Below are positions 48,713-60,799 of a DNA stretch of 64,000 nucleotides, piece by piece. Made by a program: the position numbers and the translations under genes. The notes under the pieces are model-generated. The model saw only the letters and a list, made by a program, of their open reading frames with translations, ran no database searches and was not told the DNA's origin. This DNA comes from a bacterium SCSIO 12643 (GTDB taxonomy: Bacteria; Bacteroidota; Bacteroidia; Flavobacteriales_G; Salibacteraceae): assembly GCA_024398135.1 (NCBI GenBank), contig CP073750.1, positions 3,658,001-3,722,000 of the forward strand, read 5' to 3'. The first letter of the stretch is position 1. Each line of letters begins with the position of its first letter.

Positions 48713-51700
48713 TCATACCAACTCTCCTCCCAAATCCCCACTTCCGGGGCCAAGTTTAATAATATGGTGGGCGGATTCAATTAATGTGCAATGATGTTCA
48801 ATAAAAAGTACAGTATGCCCATCATGAACCAGTTTTTGGAAAACTTCAATGAGCGGTAATAAGTCGAAGTAATGTAATCCGGTGCTGGGTTCATCAAACA
48901 GGTATAAGGTTTTCCCTTTTTTTGATTGTTTGCTACACATAGATTTGGCCAACTTTAAACGTTGTGCTTCTCCGGTAGAAAGCGTATTTCCGGCTTGCCC
49001 CAGATGTAAATGACCTAAGCCTACCCGGAGTAAGATTTTGAGTTGTGCGACAATGGATTTCTCTTCAAAAAAAGTGGCAGCTTCCTGAATGGTCATTTGA
49101 AGTAAATCCCCAATGGAATGCCCCTGGAACTTACATTCCAGAATGGATGGGTGATAACGTTGCCCATGGCATGCGTCACAGGTTAACCACAGATCACTCA
49201 TAAAATCCATACTGGTTTTGATCTTTCCATTTCCATTACACGTAGGACATTTCCCTTTTTTACTTTGATAGGAAAAATCCGCTTTTTTGAAACCTAGAGT
49301 TTTGGCAGTTTCGGTTTTTGCAAAAAGTGTTTTTAAACCGTCCAGAATTCCGGTATAGGAGAGAGGTGTACTCAATCGATTTAAAGCAACGGTTTCCTGA
49401 TCAATCAAAATAACCTCATCAAATTGTTCGAATCCGTAGGTAGCATTACAGTGAACAGCTTTGTGTTTAACCCATGATTGATGTAGGACATCTTTAATCA
49501 AACTGGATTTACCACTTCCCGAAACTCCTGTAATAGCAATAATCTGTTGTCCGTGAAATTCAACATCAATTGATTTTAGATTGTGTGCAGAGGCGCCCTG
49601 TAGACCAAAGAGTTTTCCTCTTGGTGTTGTGGTTTTCGTTGGGGAAAGCTGAGTTTTTTGCATCATTTGGTAAGTCACCGAATGAGGTGCATGTTCCAAT
49701 CCATCTAATTGTCCCTGATAGATCACTTCACCACCTAAAACTCCTGCGCCCGGGCCCATTTCAATTAAATAGTCAGCAGTTTGAATAAATGACGGATCAT
49801 GTTCTACCACAACAACCGTATTTCCATTGGCTACAATTTGTTTCAATATGTTAGATAGAACAGAAACCTGACCAGCATCTAACCCAATGGTAGGTTCATC
49901 CAACACGTAAGTAACGCCAAAGAGATGAGTCGCCAATTGTCCGGCTAGTGTGATTCGTTGCCTTTCACCACCGGATAAAGTATTTACCGACCGATCCAGA
50001 TTTAAGTATCCCAATCCCAAATCCTGAATGGTTTGCAACGATTGAATTACCGGAGGCAGTACCACTTTACTGATGGCATGTGTGGTGGTATCCATTTGAG
50101 CTCCTTCATTTGTTAGTAAATCTAAACATGCAGTAATACTTAGCTGCGTGAGCTCATGGATATTTTTACCTAGAAATTTAGTGTGTAATAACTCTGGCTT
50201 TAAGCGACTCCCATTACATATCTCACAAGTCACATGGTGTTGTAAGTCTAATAAAGGCTGAATGTTTTTATTGTGACGTCTTCTTTGAAATTCATCATCG
50301 ATATAACGACAAAGTCCTAACCATTTAGCTTTTAATTGCTGAGTTCCGGAACTGGTTTTGGTGACATATTTCCAGGTCACATCCCATTCAGTATCTCCGG
50401 TACCATAGAGAATGGTTTCCTGAATTTCAGGTTCCAAATGATTCCATGAGCGTTCGATATTCCAGTTTTTCTGTAGAGCAACTTCACGAAGAGTGGCCAT
50501 AAATTGCCCATTTGGATCGGCATAATAAGCAATAGCTTTATTGGTAGAAATCGCACCATCCCAAATGGATTTATCAGGTGAAACAATGATTTCATCCGGA
50601 TCACATTTCTGGATTTCACCAAAACCTTCACAGGCCGGACAAGCGCCTAAATGATGATTAAAAGAGTAGTGTTGGGCGGTATAGATTTCTCCTGCTTGTT
50701 GTGCCATTCGAGAATACAATAACCTAAATGCATCATAAATTCCGGAGAGTGTTCCAACAGTAGATCTGGGTGAAGCAGCGCCTCCTTTTCGATGAATACC
50801 AATGGCAGGCCCTAATCCAGAAAACGAATCAATCACAGCTTCACTGTTTTGTTGCAAAAAGCTTCGATGGTACGTAGATAAAGATTCGGTGAATCGTGCA
50901 TTAGACTCTGCGAATAGCGTATCATATACCAATGAAGATTTACCGCTACCAGAAAGCCCGGTGACTACAGTCAGTTGGTTTTTTGGAATGCGTATATCAA
51001 TGTTTTTAAGTCCATGGGTACGCACACCATTTAACACGATCTCGTTGGATTTGACATCTGTAGTATCATGCGAAATAGGAGACTGCGAGTGGCTGGTTGG
51101 TTTTGGAATACCTTGATGGATAATTTCTCCACCGGCAGAACCACTTTGTGGCCCCAATTCAATGTGCCAATCGCTCCAACCTATAATAGTTTCGTTTTGT
51201 TCCAGGCAGACGATAGTATTGCCTTGCTTTTTGATACGATCGAATAAATTTAAGAGCGATTGTACGTCACTGGCATGAAGCCCTATACTTGGTTCTATAA
51301 CGACATATAGCGTATCTCCCGTATCTTTCTTTTGTAGTTGATTGGCAATTTTAATCCGTTGGGCTTCACCACCTGAAAGTGTGGTGGAGGATTGTCCTAA
51401 TTGAAGATATCCAAGCCCAATTTCCTGTAACACTTTTAGTCCGGTTTGAAGTTTCTTTTGATCTTCAAAAAAGGTGAGCGCTTCATCTACGGATAATCGA
51501 TAGATATCTGCAATAGACAATCCTTTGAATTTAATTTCAAGCGTTTCTGCATTGAATCGATCTCCATTACAGGTGCCACAAATCAAATCTACATTTCCCA
51601 AAAAGTGCATGCCGATCTGAGTTTTCCCTGCACCCTGACAGGTTTCGCAACGGCCGCCTTTGGAATTAAATGAAAAACGAGATTTGGTATACTTTCTTTC

Positions 51701-53485
51701 TTTGGCTTCTGGGAGACTGGCAAACAAATCCCGGATATGATCTGATAAACCCAAATATGTAGTAGGATTACTCCGTGGGGTTTTACCAATAGGAGAATGG
51801 TCTACAAAAATGAGTTTATTAATGGCATCCAGATTCCGATGGCCTTTGATTTTAGTAGGTGTTCCTTGTTCCAATCCTAAATGTTGACGTACCGTTCGAA
51901 GCAAGGTGTCTTTTACTAAACTGGATTTCCCAACTCCGGAACGACCACTGACCACATTGAGTTTACCCAACTGAAACGTCACGTCAATGTTTTTAAGGTT
52001 TCTTTCGCTACAGCCCAATAATGTAATAGCTGTATTATTTACTACTGGAGCAGAGACCGATTGATGTGCTACATATTGGTTTTCTAACGCCTGTAAAGTT
52101 GGGCTTGTGGTGCGTAGTTCTTTTTGTTTTCTAAATTCAGAATAAGCCCCATTAAAAATCACTTCACCACCACGAATTCCGGCCTTAGGGCCAATTTCAA
52201 TGATATGATCTGCACTGGAAATGGTATCCAGATCATGTTCCACAACAATGACCGTATTTCCTTTTTGAACCAGCTGTTTCAGATGGTAGATCAGACGTTT
52301 GTTTTCTTCATGATGCAAACCAATAGATGGTTCGTCAAAGACATATAAGACATCGCTTAAGGGCACCAAAAGTTGATTAGCTACCCGAATCCGTTGGATT
52401 TCACTGGCTCGAAGGGTATTTGCTGGTCGGTCCAGACTTAAATGCCCCAAACCCAAATCTGTCAACAGATCTACCTGAGTCAGGATTTTTTGAATGATTT
52501 CATGCGCTATCGGTTCCCAGTTATGAGAGGTGATCCAGTTTTTTAATTGGTGTAACTCCCGCTGTACGATTTTCGCAATGGATTGCCCTTGAATGGTTAC
52601 GCTTAATGCGTCTGAATTCAAACGTGCGCCCTGACATTCGGGACAAGTTACGGAATGGACATACTTCAAAATATTGGCATTTCGATCTCTACGCAGAATA
52701 TCCGACATAATCGGAATCATGCCTTTGTAAAACCCTTCTTCTCTGGGTTTGGCTTTAATTCCAGTCCATTTGAGTCTGGATTCTAAACTGTGTTTACCAA
52801 ATGGAACTTTGATTTTTTCACTGCCATATAGAATGACTTTCTGCTGTTTTGCAGTGAGTTGATTCCATGGAATGTCTACGTTAAATCCTTCAGCTTCGCA
52901 CACCTGATTAAGCACATCAATAGTCACTTGCGAATACATGATATACCCATTGGGGAGTGTAGGCGCCAAAGCACCTTCTCTAAGCGTTTTTTCGGGATGT
53001 ACAACTAAACGATTCAGATCAATTTCTTCCTTTTTGCCAATCCCATTACATTGCGAACATTTTCCAACCTCTGAATTAAAAGAGAATAGTGCGCGCGAAA
53101 GTGAAATATCTGCTTCGGTTTTCCCGGTACGTGCAAACAACAAACGCAACAAATCGTATAGATCAGATAAAGTCCCTACCGTAGAACGGGCATGCATGCC
53201 GGTAGTACGCTGACCAATGGCAATCACAGGGGATAAACCTTCAATTTCGTCCACATCCGGACGGTTGAGTTTCCCCATAAACTGACGCGCAAAAGAGGGG
53301 AGGGTTTCAAAATATCTCCGTTGCCCTTCCTGAGCGATAATTTCAAATACCAAACTCGATTTCCCGGAACCGGAAATCCCTGTCACCACAATAAAATGAT
53401 TATGCGGGATTTTTAATGATACGTTTTTAAGATTGTTGGTCTTCGCGCCCTGAATTACGATTTCCGAAGGTGTACCTGCGTTCAT
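48713..53485 (-). CDS. Double-length UvrA-like protein with four ABC ATPase modules
   Basis: The 1590-residue protein consists of two UvrA-like halves in tandem, each with two ABC ATPase modules and zinc-finger CxxC pairs. Walker A motifs are GISGSGKSS (36-44), SGRSGVGKSS (about 515), TGLSGSGKSS (about 843) and TGVSGSGKSS (about 1320). Signature motifs are NTLRASEIQRIR (degenerate), TTLSGGEAQRIK, NTLSGGERQRIT and NTLSTGEAQRLK. Walker B in module 2 reads VVIEPSIGLH, with Ile where Asp is expected. A normal UvrA is about 940 residues and dimerises; tandem UvrA is known from Chlamydia. It may act as a pseudo-dimer in DNA damage recognition or as an antibiotic-type or self-resistance UvrA variant. 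The first half is partly degenerate. Confidence 0.85.
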   Translation of the reverse strand: MNAGTPSEIVIQGAKTNNLKNVSLKIPHNHFIVVTGISGSGKSSLVFEIIAQEGQRRYFETLPSFARQFMGKLNRPDVDEIEGLSPVIAIGQRTTGMHARSTVGTLSDLYDLLRLLFARTGKTEADISLSRALFSFNSEVGKCSQCNGIGKKEEIDLNRLVVHPEKTLREGALAPTLPNGYIMYSQVTIDVLNQVCEAEGFNVDIPWNQLTAKQQKVILYGSEKIKVPFGKHSLESRLKWTGIKAKPREEGFYKGMIPIMSDILRRDRNANILKYVHSVTCPECQGARLNSDALSVTIQGQSIAKIVQRELHQLKNWITSHNWEPIAHEIIQKILTQVDLLTDLGLGHLSLDRPANTLRASEIQRIRVANQLLVPLSDVLYVFDEPSIGLHHEENKRLIYHLKQLVQKGNTVIVVEHDLDTISSADHIIEIGPKAGIRGGEVIFNGAYSEFRKQKELRTTSPTLQALENQYVAHQSVSAPVVNNTAITLLGCSERNLKNIDVTFQLGKLNVVSGRSGVGKSSLVKDTLLRTVRQHLGLEQGTPTKIKGHRNLDAINKLIFVDHSPIGKTPRSNPTTYLGLSDHIRDLFASLPEAKERKYTKSRFSFNSKGGRCETCQGAGKTQIGMHFLGNVDLICGTCNGDRFNAETLEIKFKGLSIADIYRLSVDEALTFFEDQKKLQTGLKVLQEIGLGYLQLGQSSTTLSGGEAQRIKIANQLQKKDTGDTLYVVIEPSIGLHASDVQSLLNLFDRIKKQGNTIVCLEQNETIIGWSDWHIELGPQSGSAGGEIIHQGIPKPTSHSQSPISHDTTDVKSNEIVLNGVRTHGLKNIDIRIPKNQLTVVTGLSGSGKSSLVYDTLFAESNARFTESLSTYHRSFLQQNSEAVIDSFSGLGPAIGIHRKGGAASPRSTVGTLSGIYDAFRLLYSRMAQQAGEIYTAQHYSFNHHLGACPACEGFGEIQKCDPDEIIVSPDKSIWDGAISTNKAIAYYADPNGQFMATLREVALQKNWNIERSWNHLEPEIQETILYGTGDTEWDVTWKYVTKTSSGTQQLKAKWLGLCRYIDDEFQRRRHNKNIQPLLDLQHHVTCEICNGSRLKPELLHTKFLGKNIHELTQLSITACLDLLTNEGAQMDTTTHAISKVVLPPVIQSLQTIQDLGLGYLNLDRSVNTLSGGERQRITLAGQLATHLFGVTYVLDEPTIGLDAGQVSVLSNILKQIVANGNTVVVVEHDPSFIQTADYLIEMGPGAGVLGGEVIYQGQLDGLEHAPHSVTYQMMQKTQLSPTKTTTPRGKLFGLQGASAHNLKSIDVEFHGQQIIAITGVSGSGKSSLIKDVLHQSWVKHKAVHCNATYGFEQFDEVILIDQETVALNRLSTPLSYTGILDGLKTLFAKTETAKTLGFKKADFSYQSKKGKCPTCNGNGKIKTSMDFMSDLWLTCDACHGQRYHPSILECKFQGHSIGDLLQMTIQEAATFFEEKSIVAQLKILLRVGLGHLHLGQAGNTLSTGEAQRLKLAKSMCSKQSKKGKTLYLFDEPSTGLHYFDLLPLIEVFQKLVHDGHTVLFIEHHCTLIESAHHIIKLGPGSGDLGGELV

Positions 53486-53614
53486 GGCGTGAAAGTAATA
53501 TTATTTACGGTTAAGAATAGAGGGAAACTGTGAAGTTGTATTACAGATAAAAACAGTTTAAATTAGTTTCATTCTTCTGATGAGTTATTGACCGTTAATA
53601 AGCAGACATACGAA

Positions 53615-54193
53615 TTGAAAAAAATCGTTTTAATATTGATCATCTTAAGCCCTTATTTGGTTTATGCTAAGCATAATAGTTGGGGTTTTAAGGATGTCAC
53701 TTTGCAGGTGGGACAGCAGTTTAATATTCAGGAAAGAACTTTGTGGTCATTTGAAATACAATTTGATAAGTATACTCGGAGCAGTTTAACCCGTTTACCT
53801 TATTGGGGCTTTGGGATACTGTACAATCACAGTGAAAGTCAAACTGAATTTGGAATAAAAGGTATCTTAAACCCAGTAAGGTATTCTCTAACAAGAGGGA
53901 ATTCAACCTATTTTATTCCATATGTATACGGTCAGGGAAATTATGTTCAAACCAAATCAATGAATTCAGAAGATGAGGTCTTTCTAAACAATAGCAATTT
54001 CCGAACAGGAGTTGGGGTAACAGGAAAATTTAGAAGTAATCAGGCCCTCTTTATTACTTCAACAGCCCAATTGGGGTATAACTTTTATTTTGAGGATAAA
54101 ATCGAAGATCGTGCATCTTTTGTTTTCGAGTTTAGAATAGGAGTAGGCATTGATATAGGTTATTTGAAACGAAAGAAACATTTGAAGGAATAA
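53615..54193 (+). CDS. Small secreted barrel-like protein, TTG start
   Basis: The frame has no early ATG. The TTG at 53615 gives KKIVLILIILSPYLVYA, a good signal peptide; another TTG at 53588 adds nine residues. The mature protein of about 175 residues is rich in alternating strands (ERTLWSFEIQFDKYTR, GFGILYNHSESQTEFGIKG, FIPYVYGQGNYVQTK) and ends FVFEFRIGVGIDIGYL. This fits an outer-membrane-associated small barrel. It lies next to the AT-rich island that begins about 54.2 kb. No family is recognised. Confidence 0.55.
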   Translation: MKKIVLILIILSPYLVYAKHNSWGFKDVTLQVGQQFNIQERTLWSFEIQFDKYTRSSLTRLPYWGFGILYNHSESQTEFGIKGILNPVRYSLTRGNSTYFIPYVYGQGNYVQTKSMNSEDEVFLNNSNFRTGVGVTGKFRSNQALFITSTAQLGYNFYFEDKIEDRASFVFEFRIGVGIDIGYLKRKKHLKE

Positions 54194-54289
54194 CTGGGTG
54201 CATATTAAATGACTTAAGGGTTATTTAAAATGTTAAAAACTATATCCATATTAGTCATTCACGGGACAAGTGAAATTTGTACTTTCATA

Positions 54290-54472
54290 CTTCCAATTAC
54301 CCTATGGTAAATCTCCCAGTTATCATATTGTTGGAAGTAATAACCGCTTTTAAATGCTTATAAGTATTTATTGTTGGTTAGGTGTGTAGGGCGCTATACT
54401 TAAAACGAAATATAGGAATAAAAGATATAGTGGAGGTATGTGTACTGGTACATATACACTTACGTTGTGCGC
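54290..54472 (+). other. Structured non-coding leader and left boundary of the RT/polymerase unit
   Basis: The 300 bases before the RT gene have no gene. They contain nested inverted repeats: CTTCCAA (54290) pairs with TTGGAAG (54331), enclosing the hairpin TTACC-CTAT-GGTAA (54297-54310). A second set, TTAGGTGTGTA / TATACACTTA and GCGCTATACTT / AAGATATAGTGG, has an inner hairpin GTATGTGTAC-TG-GTACATATAC. A box GAAATTTG (54272-54279) is one base off the -7 consensus. The stretch ends in GTTGTGCGC (54464-54472), whose exact reverse complement follows the polymerase gene. It could encode an RNA used by the RT, or be a recombination site. Confidence 0.45.
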
Positions 54473-54494
54473 AAGGTAAAGAAACATTGAGAAA

Positions 54495-56186
54495 TTGAAG
54501 AAACAAATTGAACTAGACGAAATAGACCTATCAAAAGTTAAGATTGGTGGAATTGAATATAACTTAGATATTGCTCTAAAAAGACTTAAACAAGATTTAA
54601 GAGATGATTGGTTTCCCGACTTTTTAGAATTTAGGGATATTTTCGAAAATAAAACATACTTCTCAGAGCAATTAAAAAAATATACTGAATCAAATGAATT
54701 GTACGAACCAAGTCCTGCGCTACATTTTGACATTCCAAAACCAGGATATACAATTAGGTATTCCAGCGAAACAAATATTATTGATAGATTAATTTATCAA
54801 GCTTGTGTCGACTTTATAGCTCCTGAACTTGATAAAATTCACTCAGCATCTATCTATTCACATAGAGTAAATTCAGATTGGAGTAACAAATATTTTTTTA
54901 AATATGCGGTTGATGAGTGGAATAAATTTTTATCTGATACTAAGATAGAATTAGATAAAGAAGAAAATGAAGTTTTACTAATTACCGATTTATCGAACTA
55001 CTATGAATCCATTAGTATTAAAGATTTAAACAATACTCTAAATTTCCAAATTGGAAACTTAACTATTGACTCAAAAAAGAAAAAGGAATTCAAGAAAGTT
55101 TCAAGTCAACTTAATAAATTACTTTCTAATTGGTGCCAGCCAGATACTAAAAGAGGAATTCCTCAAAACCGAGACGCATCCTCATTCTTGTCAAATATTT
55201 TTTTAAATCCTGTTGATGATATAATGATCAAATCTGGTTATAAATATTTCAGGTATATGGATGATATTAGAATTGTCTGCAAAAATAAATTTGAGGGAAG
55301 AAAAGCACTTAAATTATTAGTAAAGGAATTAAGAAAAAAAGGGTTAAATGTTAATTCAAAAAAAACTCAAATATTAGATTTAAACAATTCAGAACATAGA
55401 CCTATCGCAAATGAAGCATTACAAAAAAGTGACAAGCAAATTGATCAAATTGAGAGTTTATTAAAGTCCAAAAAAGCTAGAGGTGTACAAATAGCTGTAC
55501 CTATGCTAAGGAAAAAAACTATATCACTTATAGAAAGTGGAGGAACATTAGAAAGACATTTCAGGTTTTGTGTTAATCGCCTTGAAAGGCTCGTAAGAAT
55601 ACCTGAATTAAAAGCTAGGTTAGAACTGGATGAAATTACAAATGCCATAATTTCCGAGTTAATTAACCAACCTTGGTCAACTGACTCATTTGCAAGATAT
55701 TTAATTAGTGTACCTCTTACAGAAAATCAACTACAGAGAATTGTAAATATTCTTTTAGATGATGAAAAAAACATTTACGAATGGCAAGAGTACCATATTT
55801 GGAGAATTCTAATTAATCGCAATTACAAAAGTTCGCAATTATTAGACAAAGCAAGGGAGAATTTAATTCATCGAGCAACTGACATACCTATTATTGGTGG
55901 GTCAGCACTATATTTATGTGCAATTGGTGATGGGAATGATAGAAAACAAATAGCTGACAATTTTCAAAACCTTAATAATTTCTTTGTGCAAAGAATTGCT
56001 TTGATTGGTATTAAAAATTTAGACTATAGTACTATTATTAAGGGATCTGTAGAGAAATTCTTAGACAAAACACATAAGGGAACATATAAAGTCTTAAATA
56101 CAAACTACAATGACATATACTGCTTAACTCCTTCAAAACTCAATTTCAAGGATTTTTATGATGAATTACCTGAATTTATATCATAA
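54495..56186 (+). CDS. Reverse transcriptase with C-terminal helical domain (putative defence RT)
   Basis: The 563-residue protein has an RT fingers-palm domain: the entry motif ALHFDIPKPGYTIRYSS near 75, motif A TDLSNYYESIS (Asp165), the QNRDASSFLSNIFL region, and the catalytic YMDD box (Tyr254, Asp256, Asp257), then KKGLNVNSKKTQILD. About 230 mainly helical residues follow without a known enzymatic domain, as in abortive-infection and unknown-group (UG) RTs. There is no maturase X domain, no DGR repeats and no retron msr/msd-like pair that I could recognise. Translation apparently starts at TTG. The gene is very AT-rich and directly abuts a family A polymerase gene (TAAATG), so the two proteins probably work together. 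Confidence 0.85.
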   Translation: MKKQIELDEIDLSKVKIGGIEYNLDIALKRLKQDLRDDWFPDFLEFRDIFENKTYFSEQLKKYTESNELYEPSPALHFDIPKPGYTIRYSSETNIIDRLIYQACVDFIAPELDKIHSASIYSHRVNSDWSNKYFFKYAVDEWNKFLSDTKIELDKEENEVLLITDLSNYYESISIKDLNNTLNFQIGNLTIDSKKKKEFKKVSSQLNKLLSNWCQPDTKRGIPQNRDASSFLSNIFLNPVDDIMIKSGYKYFRYMDDIRIVCKNKFEGRKALKLLVKELRKKGLNVNSKKTQILDLNNSEHRPIANEALQKSDKQIDQIESLLKSKKARGVQIAVPMLRKKTISLIESGGTLERHFRFCVNRLERLVRIPELKARLELDEITNAIISELINQPWSTDSFARYLISVPLTENQLQRIVNILLDDEKNIYEWQEYHIWRILINRNYKSSQLLDKARENLIHRATDIPIIGGSALYLCAIGDGNDRKQIADNFQNLNNFFVQRIALIGIKNLDYSTIIKGSVEKFLDKTHKGTYKVLNTNYNDIYCLTPSKLNFKDFYDELPEFIS

Positions 56187-57773
56187 ATGAAATTGTTTCT
56201 ATCACATAAAATAGATATTTATGATTTCTCCGAATCTATATACATTGGTGTATTTGAAAATGGAACAATTCAAAGGTTCAGTATTCAAGAAATAATCGAT
56301 TATCCAAACGAGATAGTAACATATGAGGTAAGATATTTATTAAATCAGATAAGAAAGAATTACAAAGGAAAAATCCCAAAAATAACCGACTTAGGTCAAA
56401 TTGTAAAAATAAACGCTGGAAGATCAAAAAAATCATATCCAAAAGGTAAATATCCTTGGATTTTTTGGAATAGAATAAATAGAGATATTGGTACAGAAGA
56501 GTCCAAAAATTTATATGCTAAGTTAAGAGAAGAAACTAGTGAAGATGAAATAATACCTTCCCTTGAATTTCTTGCTAAGAAATTAAAAGCATATTATGAT
56601 GATTCAATTGTGAAAATTCAAGAATCTAATCAATTAGATAGATTCAATGACTTAGAAAATGAAATTCAACAAATACTTCACAAAAGACAAATAGAAGGTA
56701 TTCACATTGACGAAGCAATTCTTAAAGATTTAGTAAATAAATTAGAAGTAAATAAAAATGCTTTAATCAATAAACTAAGATATAAATACAACCTCATTGA
56801 TTTAAATTATAAATCAATAAGACTATTTCTAATAGATAAAGGTTTTAAAATCTCTAGAAAAGACTATAATTACTTCAACCTTCTTAGCTTCTTAAAGACC
56901 ACTAAAATCACTTCTGAAATTTGTAAGGATATTTATATCACATTAAGAGTTAAATCAGATTATGAAAAGCTTAAACAATATATCACAGAAGAGGGGAATT
57001 TAATTTACCCAGAATTCGATTGTATTGGAACAATAACATCAAGAATATTAATTAATTACCCACATATTCAACAGCTAAAAAAAGAGAATAGAGTAATTTT
57101 CAAAGCTAAAGAAGGCTTTACACTTTTATATTGTGATTTTAATCAGTTTGAACCTGGCATTCTTGCATCATTTTCAAAAGATGATGTAATGATTGATTTA
57201 TATAATAGTGAAGATATTTATACTAATTTTAGCGAGTATATTTTTGGTACTAAAGCATTAAGAAAAGAAGCTAAAGTTCTTTTTCTATCTTATTTATATG
57301 GAATGTCAAATAAAAAATTGATTAGCTCCATAGAAAATGTGATAAAAACCAAAGGCCTTACTAAAAACACATCTGCCACAGATTTTTTCTCGAAGTTTAA
57401 AAACTTAGAGAAATTCAAGGTTTCAGAATCCGAAAAGGCGGTAGAGTCTGCTTATATTCAATCTGAAACAACTCTTAGACGAAATATAAGAAAAACTAAT
57501 GCTGGTAAAGGAAAGAAATCTGAAACTAGATTCGTTTTAAGTCAACTGATTCAAGGAGCAGCATCTTATATTTTAAAGAAATCAATTATAGATGTTTCTA
57601 AAGATCCAGAAATTGAATTTTTAATTCCAATGCACGATGCTGTTCTCTATCAGGTTCCAACAGAAAAATTAGAAGAAAAGAAAAAGTTTATAGAAGAATG
57701 TTTTATCGGAAATTATTCGAAACTATGCCCAGATATAAATGCAACCGTTGATTTTAAACCATTTGAAGATTAA
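56187..57773 (+). CDS. Family A DNA polymerase domain protein coupled to the reverse transcriptase
   Basis: The C-terminal half of this 528-residue protein matches the Pol I palm and fingers. Motif A is YCDFNQFEPGILASFS (Asp317). Motif B is R359-xxx-K363-xxxxxxx-Y371-G372 (Klenow R754, K758, Y766), with Leu at the F762 position. Motif C is MHDAVLY (His483, Asp484), with Ala for the usual Glu. Both catalytic Asp are kept. No 5' nuclease or DEDD exonuclease is seen; residues 1-230 are unrecognised. The ATG follows the RT stop without a gap. I infer second-strand synthesis on, or extension of, RT-made DNA. It is not the housekeeping PolA, which is about 900 residues or more. Confidence 0.8.
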   Translation: MKLFLSHKIDIYDFSESIYIGVFENGTIQRFSIQEIIDYPNEIVTYEVRYLLNQIRKNYKGKIPKITDLGQIVKINAGRSKKSYPKGKYPWIFWNRINRDIGTEESKNLYAKLREETSEDEIIPSLEFLAKKLKAYYDDSIVKIQESNQLDRFNDLENEIQQILHKRQIEGIHIDEAILKDLVNKLEVNKNALINKLRYKYNLIDLNYKSIRLFLIDKGFKISRKDYNYFNLLSFLKTTKITSEICKDIYITLRVKSDYEKLKQYITEEGNLIYPEFDCIGTITSRILINYPHIQQLKKENRVIFKAKEGFTLLYCDFNQFEPGILASFSKDDVMIDLYNSEDIYTNFSEYIFGTKALRKEAKVLFLSYLYGMSNKKLISSIENVIKTKGLTKNTSATDFFSKFKNLEKFKVSESEKAVESAYIQSETTLRRNIRKTNAGKGKKSETRFVLSQLIQGAASYILKKSIIDVSKDPEIEFLIPMHDAVLYQVPTEKLEEKKKFIEECFIGNYSKLCPDINATVDFKPFED

Positions 57774-57779
57774 AACCCA

Positions 57780-57914
57780 GCGCACAACAATGTATAAAAA
57801 TAATAGCGGTTTAATTGCTAAAACAAAAATAAGTAAATATAAAAAAGGTCTCTGTTTAACCGAAAAGTTAGTGTCTATAAATCCGCTACTATTCTTATAC
57901 TAGACCGTTATAAG
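57780..57914 (+). repeat. Long imperfect palindrome downstream of the RT/polymerase unit (attC-like)
   Basis: It begins GCGCACAAC, the exact reverse complement of GTTGTGCGC at 54464-54472, and ends GTTATAAG. The arms TATAAAAATAATAGCGGTTT (57793 onward) and the reverse complement of AAATCCGCTACTATTCTTAT (ending 57898) match except for a few bases. About 50 unpaired bases lie between. An inverse core matching the unit's own left end, a long folded middle and a terminal GTT are how integron cassette sites are built. The core does not fit the classical GTTRRRY exactly. Confidence 0.5.
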
Positions 57915-57926
57915 TAATTAATAAGA

Positions 57927-58373
57927 ATGGAAGAAAACGAATACAAAATTGAATTAAGAAAAGTACTGGATGAAAATTCATCAAATGCAGTAAAGAATCT
58001 AAATGAAACAATACAATCTTTACCTGAAAAGACGAAAAGAATTGATTTAACGATTTTTCCAGACCAAGATGGAGAAGGTACTTTTGGAGTTAGAGTATCT
58101 TTATCAGGTCCTGATTTGTATGTTTTGAATAAAGCAATTGAAAAATCAGCTGATTTAATTAATGTGATTCATACTCCAGAAGGTTTAAGCCCAAACGTTC
58201 CCCTTATGGATTCCTTTGATTCTAGTTTCGAAGTAAATGATGTACTATCTGATGTGGTTGGGGATTGGTTAAAATCTATTTGGAATCAGGTGGATCACAA
58301 AAGTATTAATCTACCAGTCGCAATTATAGCTGATGAAGACTATGGTATAACGTTACCGATTGAACTAAATTAG
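57927..58373 (+). CDS. Conserved hypothetical protein (DUF6389-like)
   Basis: The 148-residue soluble acidic protein starts MEENEYKIELRKVLDENSSN and continues with LTIFPDQDGEGTFGVRVSLS and VGDWLKSIWNQV. There is no signal peptide. The resemblance to DUF6389 is from memory and unverified; the function of that family is unknown. It is followed after 3 bp by another small gene and lies in the second cassette-like interval (57907-58802), so the two are probably cotranscribed. It could be immunity- or defence-associated given its neighbours, but nothing in the sequence shows this. Confidence 0.65.
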   Translation: MEENEYKIELRKVLDENSSNAVKNLNETIQSLPEKTKRIDLTIFPDQDGEGTFGVRVSLSGPDLYVLNKAIEKSADLINVIHTPEGLSPNVPLMDSFDSSFEVNDVLSDVVGDWLKSIWNQVDHKSINLPVAIIADEDYGITLPIELN

Positions 58374-58376
58374 AAT

Positions 58377-58775
58377 ATGAAACTTGATTACGATATAATT
58401 AAAGCCTTTTTAAATGGATTTCAAGATAGCAAAAAGCCGACTTTGAATACTTTAGAGGTTTTCACGTCTCTTAATTATGATCATAATGTTAAGACAGATT
58501 TCAATTTGGTTTGGCATTATTTAAAATTGTTAAATGATCAAAATCTCATTGAGTGCATTGGAGATAATAATGGAGATTTAGGGATTTCATTCACTGGTTC
58601 GGGTGAACCAATAATAAGTGTTAAACATTTCAGATTAACTATGTTAGGACATCAAGCTTTGGAAGCAATGAATAACAATAAAGTTTGGGAAAAAATAAAG
58701 AGCGGAGTAGATAAAATTGGAATAGCAGGTTTGAAACAAATTCCCGGATTGGCGATTAAAATACTGACAGAGTAA
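58377..58775 (+). CDS. Small DUF2513-like protein
   Basis: The 132-residue protein contains WHYLKLLNDQNLIECI and HFRLTMLGHQALEAMNNNKV followed by WEKIK. This arrangement recalls DUF2513 phage and mobile-element proteins, in which a winged-helix-like part precedes an LTWEGHEFL-type motif. The C-terminal GVDKIGIAGLKQIPGLAIKI is moderately hydrophobic. It is 3 bp downstream of the previous gene. The family's function is unknown; a DNA-binding or phage-related role is inference. Confidence 0.6.
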   Translation: MKLDYDIIKAFLNGFQDSKKPTLNTLEVFTSLNYDHNVKTDFNLVWHYLKLLNDQNLIECIGDNNGDLGISFTGSGEPIISVKHFRLTMLGHQALEAMNNNKVWEKIKSGVDKIGIAGLKQIPGLAIKILTE

Positions 58776-58776
58776 T

Positions 58777-58802
58777 ACGGGCTATCAACTATGACAGCCC
58801 GT
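58777..58802. repeat. Short hairpin after the DUF2513-like gene
   Basis: ACGGGCT (58777-58783) pairs perfectly with AGCCCGT (58796-58802), and the right arm runs into GTTAAAG. There is no T-tract, so it is a poor terminator. The GTTA ending echoes the GTTGTGCGC and GTTATAAG ends at 54464 and 57907, but the expected reverse complement of GTTATAAG is not present at its left side. Confidence 0.4.
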
Positions 58803-58810
58803 TAAAGAAA

Positions 58811-59092
58811 TTAAGATTTTCCCATCTGCTCCAATCCTTCCCACAAGATTTTTAAATTAAAAAGTGCTTTCTTTTCGTTCGTATCAAAACATAAATCTGT
58901 GTGATACAAAGCAAAGTCGTGAATCATTTTGAGCGATTCAACGAATTCACCAATTCCGTGAAATTTGACATAATCAAGAAACTCTGCTTCCGAAGAATTT
59001 AAGAGTATTGTGACTTTTGGTTCGGTTGAACCATTAACCGTTTTCAAAAAGCTGTCATTCAGACAAACATTTTGACCATTTGTGTTTCGCAT
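58811..59092 (-). CDS. Small hypothetical protein with structured leader
   Basis: The 93-residue soluble protein starts MRNTNGQNVCLNDSFL and continues KVTILLNSSEAEFLDYVKFH and ALFNLKILWEGLEQMGKS. No family is recognised. Its start codon lies inside TGCGAAACACA, which is perfectly complementary to TGTGTTTCGCA about 41 bases upstream in the mRNA, next to a larger folded element. Translation may therefore be controlled by RNA structure. It is oriented against the preceding plus-strand cassette-like genes. Confidence 0.55.
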   Translation of the reverse strand: MRNTNGQNVCLNDSFLKTVNGSTEPKVTILLNSSEAEFLDYVKFHGIGEFVESLKMIHDFALYHTDLCFDTNEKKALFNLKILWEGLEQMGKS

Positions 59093-59121
59093 AATTGTAA
59101 TGGATTAAATGAATAAAAAGA

Positions 59122-59194
59122 GGATAGGTCACTGCGAAACACATCAAAGCAACGCCTTGAACGGTCTGTGGGACTTGCACCCATATGCCTATCC
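59122..59194 (-). promoter_or_regulatory. Folded 73-nt leader element, possible cis-regulatory RNA
   Basis: Read on the minus strand, GGATAGG (59194-59188) pairs with CCTATCC (59128-59122), and TCTTTTTATTC follows, as in an intrinsic terminator. Inside is the hairpin TGGG-TGCAAGT-CCCA. The segment TGTGTTTCGCA (59143-59133) can instead pair with the start-codon region of the gene at 58811-59092, giving two mutually exclusive folds. The phrase GGGACTTGCACCC recurs, from memory, in many flavobacterial intergenic regions. Confidence 0.4.
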
Positions 59195-59331
59195 AAGATT
59201 TTCTGTTTAAGCCGAATTTTGATTTTTGGCGTCATTTAATAAAGTATGATGTATTTCGCACTTCAAAGATAAGACTAAAAATGATACGAGGGAAGAGCAA
59301 GCCGATAAGACTATATAAAGCAATCTCATAG

Positions 59332-59361
59332 CGGTTTGGGTTTGCGTCCGAACCGTTTTTT
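59332..59361 (+). terminator. Strong plus-strand terminator without an upstream gene
   Basis: The stem CGGTTTGGG / TCCGAACCG (nine pairs including wobbles, loop TTTGCG) is followed by six T residues. The nearest plus-strand gene ends at 58775, more than 550 bases upstream, so it may end an unannotated short transcript. The gene-free stretch 59195-59331 shows nothing else I can support. Confidence 0.6.
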
Positions 59362-59458
59362 GTTAAATCCGGATTTATACATGGCTAGTTAAAAGACTAA
59401 AAAACGAATTAAAATTGATTCGTTAACATATGTGATCGCGTAGGTATATTGGATCATC

Positions 59459-59466
59459 TAATTTTG
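59459..59466 (+). promoter_or_regulatory. -7 box of the S41 peptidase gene
   Basis: TAATTTTG matches TANNTTTG exactly, 23 bases before the ATG. No clear -33 element is present. Confidence 0.4.
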
Positions 59467-59488
59467 CCCATTAAAATCGTGATACCAC

Positions 59489-60799
59489 ATGATGAAAATA
59501 CTATTATCCAGTTTAATTTTCCTATTCACTCAACAAGTCTTTGCACAATCTGACAGATATGATGTCGATGAGGTATTATCTAAAGCGGCCTATTTAGAAG
59601 ATTTGAACCAATTAGTAGACTCTATACAAACGTATCATCCACAACCTTATGAATTCATTTCAAAAGATGACTTTGAGCGGTTTGTTCATCAAAAAAAAGA
59701 TGCCATCACAGATTCAACCACCATAGGTGAGTTTTCATGGATTTGCAATGCCATTGCTGCGAAGGTCGGTTGTGTACACACCTATACCTCAGCAGGAAAC
59801 ATATTAAACTTTTCTCCGGAAATGTTTTTTCCTGTAAAGGTGCAATACATCGATTCTAAACTCTATATCACAGATACATATGCACCTCATACGGAGTTAA
59901 AACCAGGGGTGGAAATATTGAAAATAAATGGGATGGATGTACTAGATCTCAAAACAAAAATTGCAGCTCATATTTCATCAGATGGTTACAACAAAAAATA
60001 TACAGATGCTCGAACGAATAGGAGTTTTGGATATTTCTGTGCCTATCAGCTCAACTTTCCAAAAGTCTACAAGATTGAAATTCTGGAAAATGGGGTTCAA
60101 AAAGAGGTGGTACTTCATAGGGAATTGCCAAATAAGGCGCAACAAGCTTCAAATACACCAACAGAAAATTTAAACTTCACCCTCAAGACTTCTGAAAATT
60201 TAGCCATTGTGACCATTAAAAGTTTTGTGTATTATCATGATCAGCTTCCAGTTTTTAAATCTTTTATAGATAGTTGTTTTAATCAAATTAAGCTGCACGA
60301 TATCGAAAATGTGGTGGTTGACCTCCGGGGTAATGGAGGAGGAGACCCTTACTGCGCAGTACATTTATTGCAATACATTTCAAATGACCCTTTCCGGTAT
60401 TATAAAAAAGGCACGACAACCTATTACAAAGATCTGGAAGAGGAAATTATACCATTTGAAAATAACTTCTCGGGGAAACTTTATGTATTCATGAATTCCT
60501 TATGTACTTCTACTACAGGACATCTGTGTTCCATCTTAAAACAAAACAACCTGGGAACATTAATCGGCAGTGAAACGGGAGCAACGTATAGCTGCAATGC
60601 CAATACCATTAATTTCGCATTAAAAAATACGGGTATTCATGCCTCCGTAGCAACAAAAACGTATCAGACAGATGTTACTGGTTTTACAAAGAACAGAGGG
60701 ATCATTCCAGACTATCAAACCCATATAAATCTTGCCGATATTTTAGATAAAAAAGACGTAGAGCTTGAAAAAGCAATGGAGTTAATACTTGATAAATGA
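59489..60799 (+). CDS. Secreted S41-family peptidase
   Basis: The 436-residue exported protein has a signal peptide (MMKILLSSLIFLFTQQVFAQ; either Met may start). An N-terminal helical part (PQPYEFISKDDFERFV) precedes a PDZ-like segment (LKPGVEILKINGMDVLDL). The C-terminal S41 protease core has VVVDLRGNGGGDPYCA, LYVFMNSLCTSTTGHLC with the probable nucleophile Ser, GSETGATYSC, and KNRGIIPDYQ. This is the periplasmic or outer-membrane tail-processing-like family common in Bacteroidota; the substrate is unknown. The stop overlaps the start of the next lipoprotein gene by four bases (ATGA), so the two are coupled. Confidence 0.88.
   Translation: MMKILLSSLIFLFTQQVFAQSDRYDVDEVLSKAAYLEDLNQLVDSIQTYHPQPYEFISKDDFERFVHQKKDAITDSTTIGEFSWICNAIAAKVGCVHTYTSAGNILNFSPEMFFPVKVQYIDSKLYITDTYAPHTELKPGVEILKINGMDVLDLKTKIAAHISSDGYNKKYTDARTNRSFGYFCAYQLNFPKVYKIEILENGVQKEVVLHRELPNKAQQASNTPTENLNFTLKTSENLAIVTIKSFVYYHDQLPVFKSFIDSCFNQIKLHDIENVVVDLRGNGGGDPYCAVHLLQYISNDPFRYYKKGTTTYYKDLEEEIIPFENNFSGKLYVFMNSLCTSTTGHLCSILKQNNLGTLIGSETGATYSCNANTINFALKNTGIHASVATKTYQTDVTGFTKNRGIIPDYQTHINLADILDKKDVELEKAMELILDK

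What the first reader, a model, noticed from the sequence alone, without database searches (positions are those of the whole stretch)
54495..57773. Reverse transcriptase directly coupled to a family A DNA polymerase
An RT with intact YMDD (Asp165, Asp256, Asp257) is followed without any gap (TAAATG) by a protein with Pol I motifs A, B and C (Asp317, R359/K363/Y371, Asp484) but no nuclease domains. Known bacterial RT systems (retrons, DGRs, group II introns, DRT/Abi types) either work alone or with other partners. An RT plus dedicated DNA polymerase suggests full double-strand cDNA synthesis, perhaps as phage defence. I recall surveys noting RT genes near family A polymerases but cannot verify whether this subgroup has been described or tested.
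Basis: partly seen in the sequence, partly recalled or inferred. Interest (0 to 1): 0.9.

Follow-up and report, generated by a model that had tools for sequence, protein, structure and literature searches.

The report
Reverse transcriptase–DNA polymerase gene cassette
A bacterium carries, as one mobile gene cassette, a reverse transcriptase coupled to its own small DNA polymerase; this pairing (type UG9) is already catalogued as probable phage defence but has no known mechanism, and here it shows up as a self-contained two-protein unit that moves on integrons.

Summary
RT (54495-56186) and PolA (56187-57773) are adjacent at TAAATG, both with intact polymerase catalytic residues, and PolA has no recognisable nuclease. 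The novelty claim is not right: PADLOC names them RT_UG9_small (E 1e-159) and RTasPolA (1e-112), and a 2021 survey reports a PolA-type gene beside 94% of UG9 RTs. No experiment on UG9 was found in the held papers.

New constraints: (1) PolA follows the RT in 58 of 61 UG9-like loci from many phyla, usually overlapping by 8 nt, and their divergence is matched (r = 0.98). (2) Homology between relatives mostly stops at the two genes' ends: no conserved adjacent ncRNA, no third partner. (3) The RT folds like Abi/DRT4/DRT6 enzymes. (4) PolA has two invariant active-site departures from Pol I (F762→L, E883→A, E. coli numbers). (5) Here the pair is a gene cassette: attI-like site before, attC-like hairpin after, matching an integron-like locus elsewhere in this genome; related cassettes with canonical attC sites occur in Oceanospirillales.

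Best reading: a two-enzyme antiphage DNA-synthesis module in which the RT starts DNA without a dedicated RNA and PolA extends or copies it. That division of labour is inferred.

The parts
54495..56186 (+). UG9-type reverse transcriptase, 563 aa: fingers/palm with D165 and YMDD (D256, D257), then an all-helical repeat domain (about 300-540)
   Evidence: RT_UG9_small 1.2e-159; pLDDT 92; best PDB folds DRT4, DRT6, AbiK, Abi-P2
56187..57773 (+). RT-associated family A DNA polymerase (RTasPolA), 528 aa: thumb/palm/fingers; N-terminal ~100 aa fold without a recognisable exonuclease catalytic set; no 5' nuclease
   Evidence: RTasPolA 1.1e-112; DNA_pol_A 4.3e-32; pLDDT 91.5; Bst Pol I large fragment
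54424..54464 (+). attI-like palindromic site GATATAGTGGAGGTATGTGTACTGGTACATATACACTTACG ending at the proposed crossover G|TT
   Evidence: core pattern occurs exactly 3 times in the 4.1 Mb genome; the other two follow a full-length and a truncated recombinase gene
54464..54472 (+). cassette start, R'-type box GTTGTGCGC, complementary to the box at 57780-57788
   Evidence: 9-nt match; shuffled flanks hit in 4 of 200
57780..57909 (+). attC-like site: R'' box GCGCACAAC, 18-position stem with two mismatches, large loop, then ACCG|TT
   Evidence: (covariation with 8 other sites of this genome)
57927..58373 (+). DUF6389 protein, first gene after the attC-like site (next cassette or resident gene)
   Evidence: 5.5e-46; not found in 34 other genomes of the family
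58377..58775 (+). DUF2513-like protein, in tandem with DUF6389
   Evidence: 1.1e-07

Best explanation
The pair is a UG9-type defence-associated RT system: a two-protein module, apparently without a dedicated RNA, that works by making DNA. Shown: identity as UG9 RT + RTasPolA, translational coupling, strict co-inheritance, intact catalytic residues in both, absence of a conserved neighbouring ncRNA or third gene in most lineages, and packaging as an integron-like gene cassette. Inferred: on phage infection the RT, built like the protein-primed, untemplated Abi/DRT4 enzymes, starts a DNA strand without a dedicated RNA template; the exonuclease-lacking PolA takes that product and extends or copies it (self-primed or from short primers) into long or double-stranded DNA; the product, or the drain on nucleotides and DNA-binding proteins, stops the infection, probably with loss of the cell. 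The cassette lets the whole module move as one unit between integrons and to attI-like sites outside them. Step confidences: identity > 0.95; cassette 0.85; antiphage role 0.7; RT starts and PolA copies 0.35.
For: HMM identity. PolA next to the RT in 58/61 UG9-like loci, typically overlapping 8 nt, window 0 nt; RT and PolA distances correlate r = 0.983, 0/2000 permutations; 0 of 77 other RT loci have such a PolA. Homology of close pairs ends at gene ends (WIN vs L036: 82% core, 17 nt upstream, 0 nt downstream; L050/L051 97% core, none upstream); no Rfam match; no recurrent third neighbour. RT fold closest to DRT4, DRT6, AbiK, Abi-P2. DRT4 makes random ssDNA without template, DRT3 makes dsDNA with two enzymes (PMC13213688, PMC13174585). 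attI/attC evidence; attC-type flanks in L050-L052, two of those genomes carrying IntI above cut-off. Patchy distribution, phage integrases and restriction systems as occasional neighbours.
Against: No activity, product or phage phenotype has been measured here or found in the held papers for UG9. Template independence is a property of structural relatives, not shown for UG9; by sequence profile the RT domain scores higher against CRISPR-associated and group II RTs than against DRT4, and whole-chain TM-scores to DRT4/6 are only 0.55-0.58. Four Rhodobacterales loci share 211-240 nt upstream, so a local RNA in that subgroup is not excluded. RNA elements inside the ORFs or in trans cannot be excluded. 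Defence genes were seen beside only a few loci, without a background rate.
Confidence: 0.45

Rival explanations
1. RNA-templated version: the RT copies a host, phage or trans-encoded RNA (or a segment of its own mRNA), and PolA displaces the RNA and makes the second strand, giving a full double-stranded cDNA.
For: RT domain resembles group II and CRISPR-associated RTs by profile; Class 2 DRTs use RNA templates (PMC13174585); a PolA without exonuclease could do strand displacement.
Against: No conserved adjacent ncRNA in most pairs of relatives, no Rfam hit; the fold is nearest to template-independent Class 1 enzymes; neither protein has RNase H or 5' nuclease.
Confidence: 0.2
2. DNA repair module: RT and PolA together fill or join broken DNA ends (as the group II-like G2L4 RT does in double-strand break repair), helping the cell after damage rather than against phage.
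For: The PolA partner is of a gap-filling type; fold matches include DNA polymerase theta; a repair role of the G2L4 RT is published (PMC12337344, abstract).
Against: Rare, patchy and mobile, carried on plasmids and integron cassettes, which fits conflict genes better than housekeeping repair; the RT belongs to UG/Abi, not to G2L.
Confidence: 0.15
3. PolA is not a second-strand polymerase but a binder or controller: its altered active site (Leu for F762, Ala for E883) makes it a poor polymerase that holds the RT or its ssDNA in check, with infection releasing it (toxin-antitoxin-like logic).
For: Both changes are invariant in 47 sequences and sit next to the dNTP and metal sites (alignment to Taq); translational coupling suits a stoichiometric partner.
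Against: Metal-binding D317 and D484, the E322 steric gate, R359, K363 and Y371 are also invariant, as expected for a working polymerase.
Confidence: 0.15
4. Unrelated neighbours that happen to be adjacent.
For: None found.
Against: 58/61 adjacency and r = 0.98 co-divergence.
Confidence: 0.01

Closest known systems
UG9 RT + RTasPolA (PADLOC 'DRT' models RT_UG9_small / RTasPolA; myRT survey PMC8934634: UG9 with PRK14975 in 94% of cases)
   Same: Both proteins match over nearly full length; same adjacency
   Different: Member in Bacteroidota (a 2014 survey, PMC4244168, knew UG9 only from Proteobacteria); here on an integron-like cassette
DRT4 (UG15) and DRT6 (UG12)
   Same: Closest solved folds of the RT: RT plus helical repeat domain
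   Different: Those are single-gene systems; no PolA partner
AbiK / Abi-P2 / AbiA (Class 1 UG/Abi RTs)
   Same: Fold class; no adjacent ncRNA seen
   Different: No polymerase partner; untemplated activity shown for them, not for UG9
DRT3 (Drt3a + Drt3b + ncRNA)
   Same: Two DNA-making enzymes encoded together, there giving dsDNA
   Different: Two RTs and an ncRNA; no family A polymerase
DRT7 (RT-primase-polymerase fusion)
   Same: RT linked to a second, unrelated polymerase; reported duplex-like product (preprint cited in PMC13213688)
   Different: Primase-polymerase fused in one chain, versus a separate family A polymerase
Integron gene cassettes of chromosomal integrons
   Same: attC-type hairpin with covarying stem, G|TT junctions, attI-like site
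   Different: About 3.4 kb and two genes, large for a cassette; the local recombinase matches the IntI profile only in two pieces, short of about 40 residues between them; the cassette sits outside the main array

Membership tests
UG9 RT with RTasPolA | RT best matched by the UG9 profile over full length | tested here: met
   530.6 bits, residues 15-559 of 563; best non-UG9 group is UG21 with 243.5 bits
UG9 RT with RTasPolA | PolA-type gene directly beside the RT | tested here: met
   RTasPolA 375 bits; 0 nt gap
UG9 RT with RTasPolA | Catalytic residues of both polymerases present | tested here: met
   Invariant in 47 relatives
Defence-associated RT (DRT) | Protects against phage | not testable with these tools
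   Needs phage challenge; none found in held papers for UG9
Class 1 UG/Abi RT | RT followed by a helical HEAT-like repeat domain | tested here: met
   Predicted all-helical residues 300-540; top PDB folds DRT4, DRT6, AbiK, Abi-P2. Phylogenetic class placement was not computed
Class 1 UG/Abi RT | Template-independent, protein-primed synthesis | not testable with these tools
   Biochemistry needed
Class 2 UG RT (DRT2/9/10) | Conserved cis-encoded ncRNA | tested here: not met
   Flank homology stops at or near gene ends in most pairs; no Rfam match. Not excluded for a Rhodobacterales subgroup
Group II intron RT | Maturase-family score and intron RNA | tested here: not met
   TIGR04416 77 bits against cut-off 300; no intron RNA match
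Retron | Retron RT family score and msr-msd RNA | tested here: not met
   NF038233 40 bits against 235; no RNA match
Integron gene cassette | attC-type fold at the 3' end, R''/R' boxes complementary across the cassette | tested here: met
   GTTGTGCGC/GCGCACAAC; stem 96% paired with 28 two-sided changes over 9 sites versus 25-42% when slid
Integron gene cassette | Integron integrase in the genome | tested here: inconclusive
   Own-genome recombinase next to an attI-like site and array matches TIGR02249 in two pieces (121 + 91 bits, cut-off 265) and is short of model positions 180-238
Integron gene cassette | Excision/integration activity | not testable with these tools
   Recombination assay needed

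The most novel reading that the evidence does not exclude
UG9 is a further, independent solution to making double-stranded DNA as an immune effector: a Class 1-like RT that starts DNA with no RNA at all, teamed with a specialised family A polymerase whose active site was re-tuned (L at 762, A at 883, E. coli numbers) to copy that product, the whole machine fitting in one integron cassette.
Probability: 0.3. Interest if true: 0.8.

Novelty: new member of a known kind. Interest (0 to 1): 0.5.

Why it matters
UG9 is one of the catalogued antiviral RT groups for which no mechanism was found in the held literature, and it is the one paired with a Pol I-type enzyme. Showing that the complete unit is two proteins in a ~3.4 kb cassette, with no conserved ncRNA, tells experimenters exactly what to clone and which model (RNA-templated or not) to test first. 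Its residence on integron-type cassettes in two distant bacterial groups shows a route by which it spreads.

Tried and rejected
Adjacent ncRNA: sought by flank comparison and Rfam, not found. Third conserved gene: neighbours scanned with PADLOC and Pfam, none recurrent. Phage-borne copies: only distant RTs in named phages; two UG9 loci in IMG/VR; a single-sequence PolA query found none there. Empty insertion site in the same family: DUF6389 not found in 34 genomes, so no comparison was possible. Integrase remnant just upstream of the pair: none by tblastn. End-box test in the other Bacteroidota loci L036, L037, L039: no convincing sign; L038 has an 8-nt TTAGGGGC/GCCCCTAA pair seen by eye in the output, not tested further. 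A simple attC arm scan did not report the gamma-type sites in L051/L052, probably because their arms are offset; they were judged from the sequence and from folding of one site. The main UG/Abi survey (doi 10.1093/nar/gkac467) is not held.

Full report
OBSERVATION. Two ORFs on the + strand, 54495-56186 (563 aa) and 56187-57773 (528 aa), meet as TAAATG. PADLOC identifies them as RT_UG9_small (1.2e-159) and RTasPolA (1.1e-112); Pfam gives RVT_1 and DNA_pol_A. The RT frame is open only from 54480; TTG at 54495 (or ATT at 54486) must serve as start, whereas the closest relative L036 has an in-frame ATG several codons further upstream.

IS IT KNOWN? Yes as a pairing. The myRT survey lists the PolA-type domain PRK14975 beside 94% of UG9 RTs (PMC8934634) and PADLOC has a model for the partner. 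A 2014 survey found UG9 only in Proteobacteria (PMC4244168). Full-text searches for UG9 returned those two surveys and no experiment; the held library is partial and the principal UG/Abi survey is not in it, so 'untested' means 'not found here'.

DISTRIBUTION AND COUPLING. A scan of one genome per species gave about 54 UG9-type loci (L036-L089); record titles name Bacteroidota and relatives, Planctomycetota, Verrucomicrobia, Acidobacteriota-type MAGs, Desulfobacterium and Alpha-, Beta- and Gammaproteobacteria. There are also plasmid copies and two viral-collection contigs. Only 3 of 396 Bacteroidota genomes had a strong hit. With the window, 61 loci were examined: 58 have a PolA directly downstream. 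Of the three without, two have truncated RTs (L079, L085) and one is a distant RT (L098). A few of the 58 have broken frames (L062, L070, L080, L088). The genes overlap by 8 nt in most loci. Pairwise distances of RT and PolA correlate at r = 0.983 (0 of 2000 permutations as high), and none of 77 other RT loci contains such a PolA.

NO RNA, NO THIRD GENE. Between relatives, DNA homology ends at or near the gene ends: window against L036 82.0% over the pair, 17 nt upstream and 0 nt downstream; L050 against L051 97.3%, nothing upstream; in 13 of the 16 pairs it runs under 100 nt beyond either end (also 44). The exception is a set of Rhodobacterales loci that share 211-240 nt upstream. Rfam finds nothing in 53400-59500. 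Among 187 neighbouring proteins no family recurs as a partner; phage integrases are commonest (9), and restriction, Zac and Gabija-type proteins appear in ones and twos.

STRUCTURE. The RT model (pLDDT 92) has a helical repeat domain after the palm; the best solved folds are DRT4/UG15, DRT6, AbiK, Abi-P2, then DRT9 and AbiA. The RT domain alone also scores well against group II and CRISPR-associated RTs by sequence profile, but family cut-offs for group II and retron RTs are far from met. PolA (pLDDT 91.5) matches Bacillus Pol I large fragment (E 4e-22). Aligned to Taq, the O-helix reads RxxxKvlFLsYaYG, so L367 takes the place of the Phe that is F762 in E. coli, and motif C reads PMHDA, so A485 takes the place of the Glu of HDE (E. 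coli E883); both are invariant in 47 sequences. E. coli numbering and the expected effects (altered dNTP handling, weaker catalysis) are from general knowledge of Pol I, not tested. The N-terminal ~100 residues fold but lack an exonuclease catalytic set.

A GENE CASSETTE. Just upstream of the RT is a palindromic site...GTGTACTGGTACATATACACTTACG|TTGTGCGC. The pattern GTACATATACACNTACG occurs exactly three times in this 4.1 Mb genome, plus once with one mismatch: right after a full-length tyrosine recombinase gene at 1.44 Mb, right after a truncated copy of it at 0.657 Mb, and upstream of the RT; the one-mismatch copy is 10 kb further on. The 1.42-1.44 Mb locus is an integron-like array: recombinase, attI-like site, then small-gene cassettes separated by attC-like sites. 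The site after PolA (57780-57909) is one of these: blastn finds two of the array sites at 68-69% identity, nine sites align, and their shared stem is 96% paired with 28 two-sided changes, against 25-42% paired when slid by 1-3 columns. That alignment was made by picking the two arms by hand and leaving out the loop, which favours the stem somewhat. The cassette's two ends carry complementary boxes GTTGTGCGC and GCGCACAAC, as expected if a circular intermediate re-forms attC. In several orthologous recombinase loci of other genomes a palindrome followed by a GTT junction also sits directly 3' of the gene.

Independent support: in Marinospirillum minutulum (L051) and Vreelandella olivaria (L050) the pair is followed by a classical attC-type sequence, and in L051 and a Saccharospirillum MAG (L052) the cassette ends carry complementary boxes GTTATATCG/CGATATAAC. 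The L051 site folds with z = -2.4, and GNAT and ParE-type genes follow there. The genomes of L050 and L052 hold IntI above the curated cut-off; that of L051 only fragments. Whether those IntI genes and the pair are on the same array was not established.

MECHANISM. Shown: a coupled, co-inherited, self-contained two-polymerase unit without a conserved neighbouring RNA, built on an Abi/DRT4-like RT, and mobile. Inferred: the RT initiates DNA without a dedicated template, as DRT4 and the Abi RTs do (PMC13213688, PMC12632851), and PolA extends or copies it. DRT3 (two RTs, dsDNA; PMC13174585) and DRT7 (RT-primase-polymerase; preprint cited in PMC13213688) are precedents for joining two DNA-making activities. 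Rivals are an RNA-templated version, a repair role, and PolA as a controller; see those fields.

VERDICT.

Noticed in passing
L181 (G000:C1:1422500-1442000), recombinase L181:17203-18351(-): Integron-like array with a tyrosine recombinase co-directional with the cassettes and a palindromic attI-like site at its 3' end; the recombinase is short of TIGR02249 positions 180-238. Orthologues of 54-69% identity in about ten other genomes of the class mostly show the same palindrome + GTT layout.
   Followed up: partly
window 53588-54464 and L191:920-1334 (G000:C1:3722.4-3722.8 kb): The 3' end of the beta-barrel-like gene upstream of the RT, its downstream spacer and the attI-like site are duplicated about 10.4 kb downstream, there followed by a CAAX-protease-like gene.
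   Followed up: partly
L192 (G000:C1:656000-664000), 362-740: Truncated copy of the recombinase (about 107 C-terminal residues, 90% identical) with an intact attI-like site and cassettes behind it.
   Followed up: partly
window 48713-53485 (-): Single 1590-aa ORF that reads like UvrA-type ABC repeats fused in tandem; judged by eye from the translation only.
   Followed up: no
L080, L062, L070, L088, L046: UG9 loci with broken or shortened RT or PolA frames, suggesting decay in some hosts.
   Followed up: no
L031, L032, L060, L063 upstream of the RT: 211-240 nt conserved upstream of the RT in these Rhodobacterales loci only; promoter, regulatory element or local RNA unknown.
   Followed up: no
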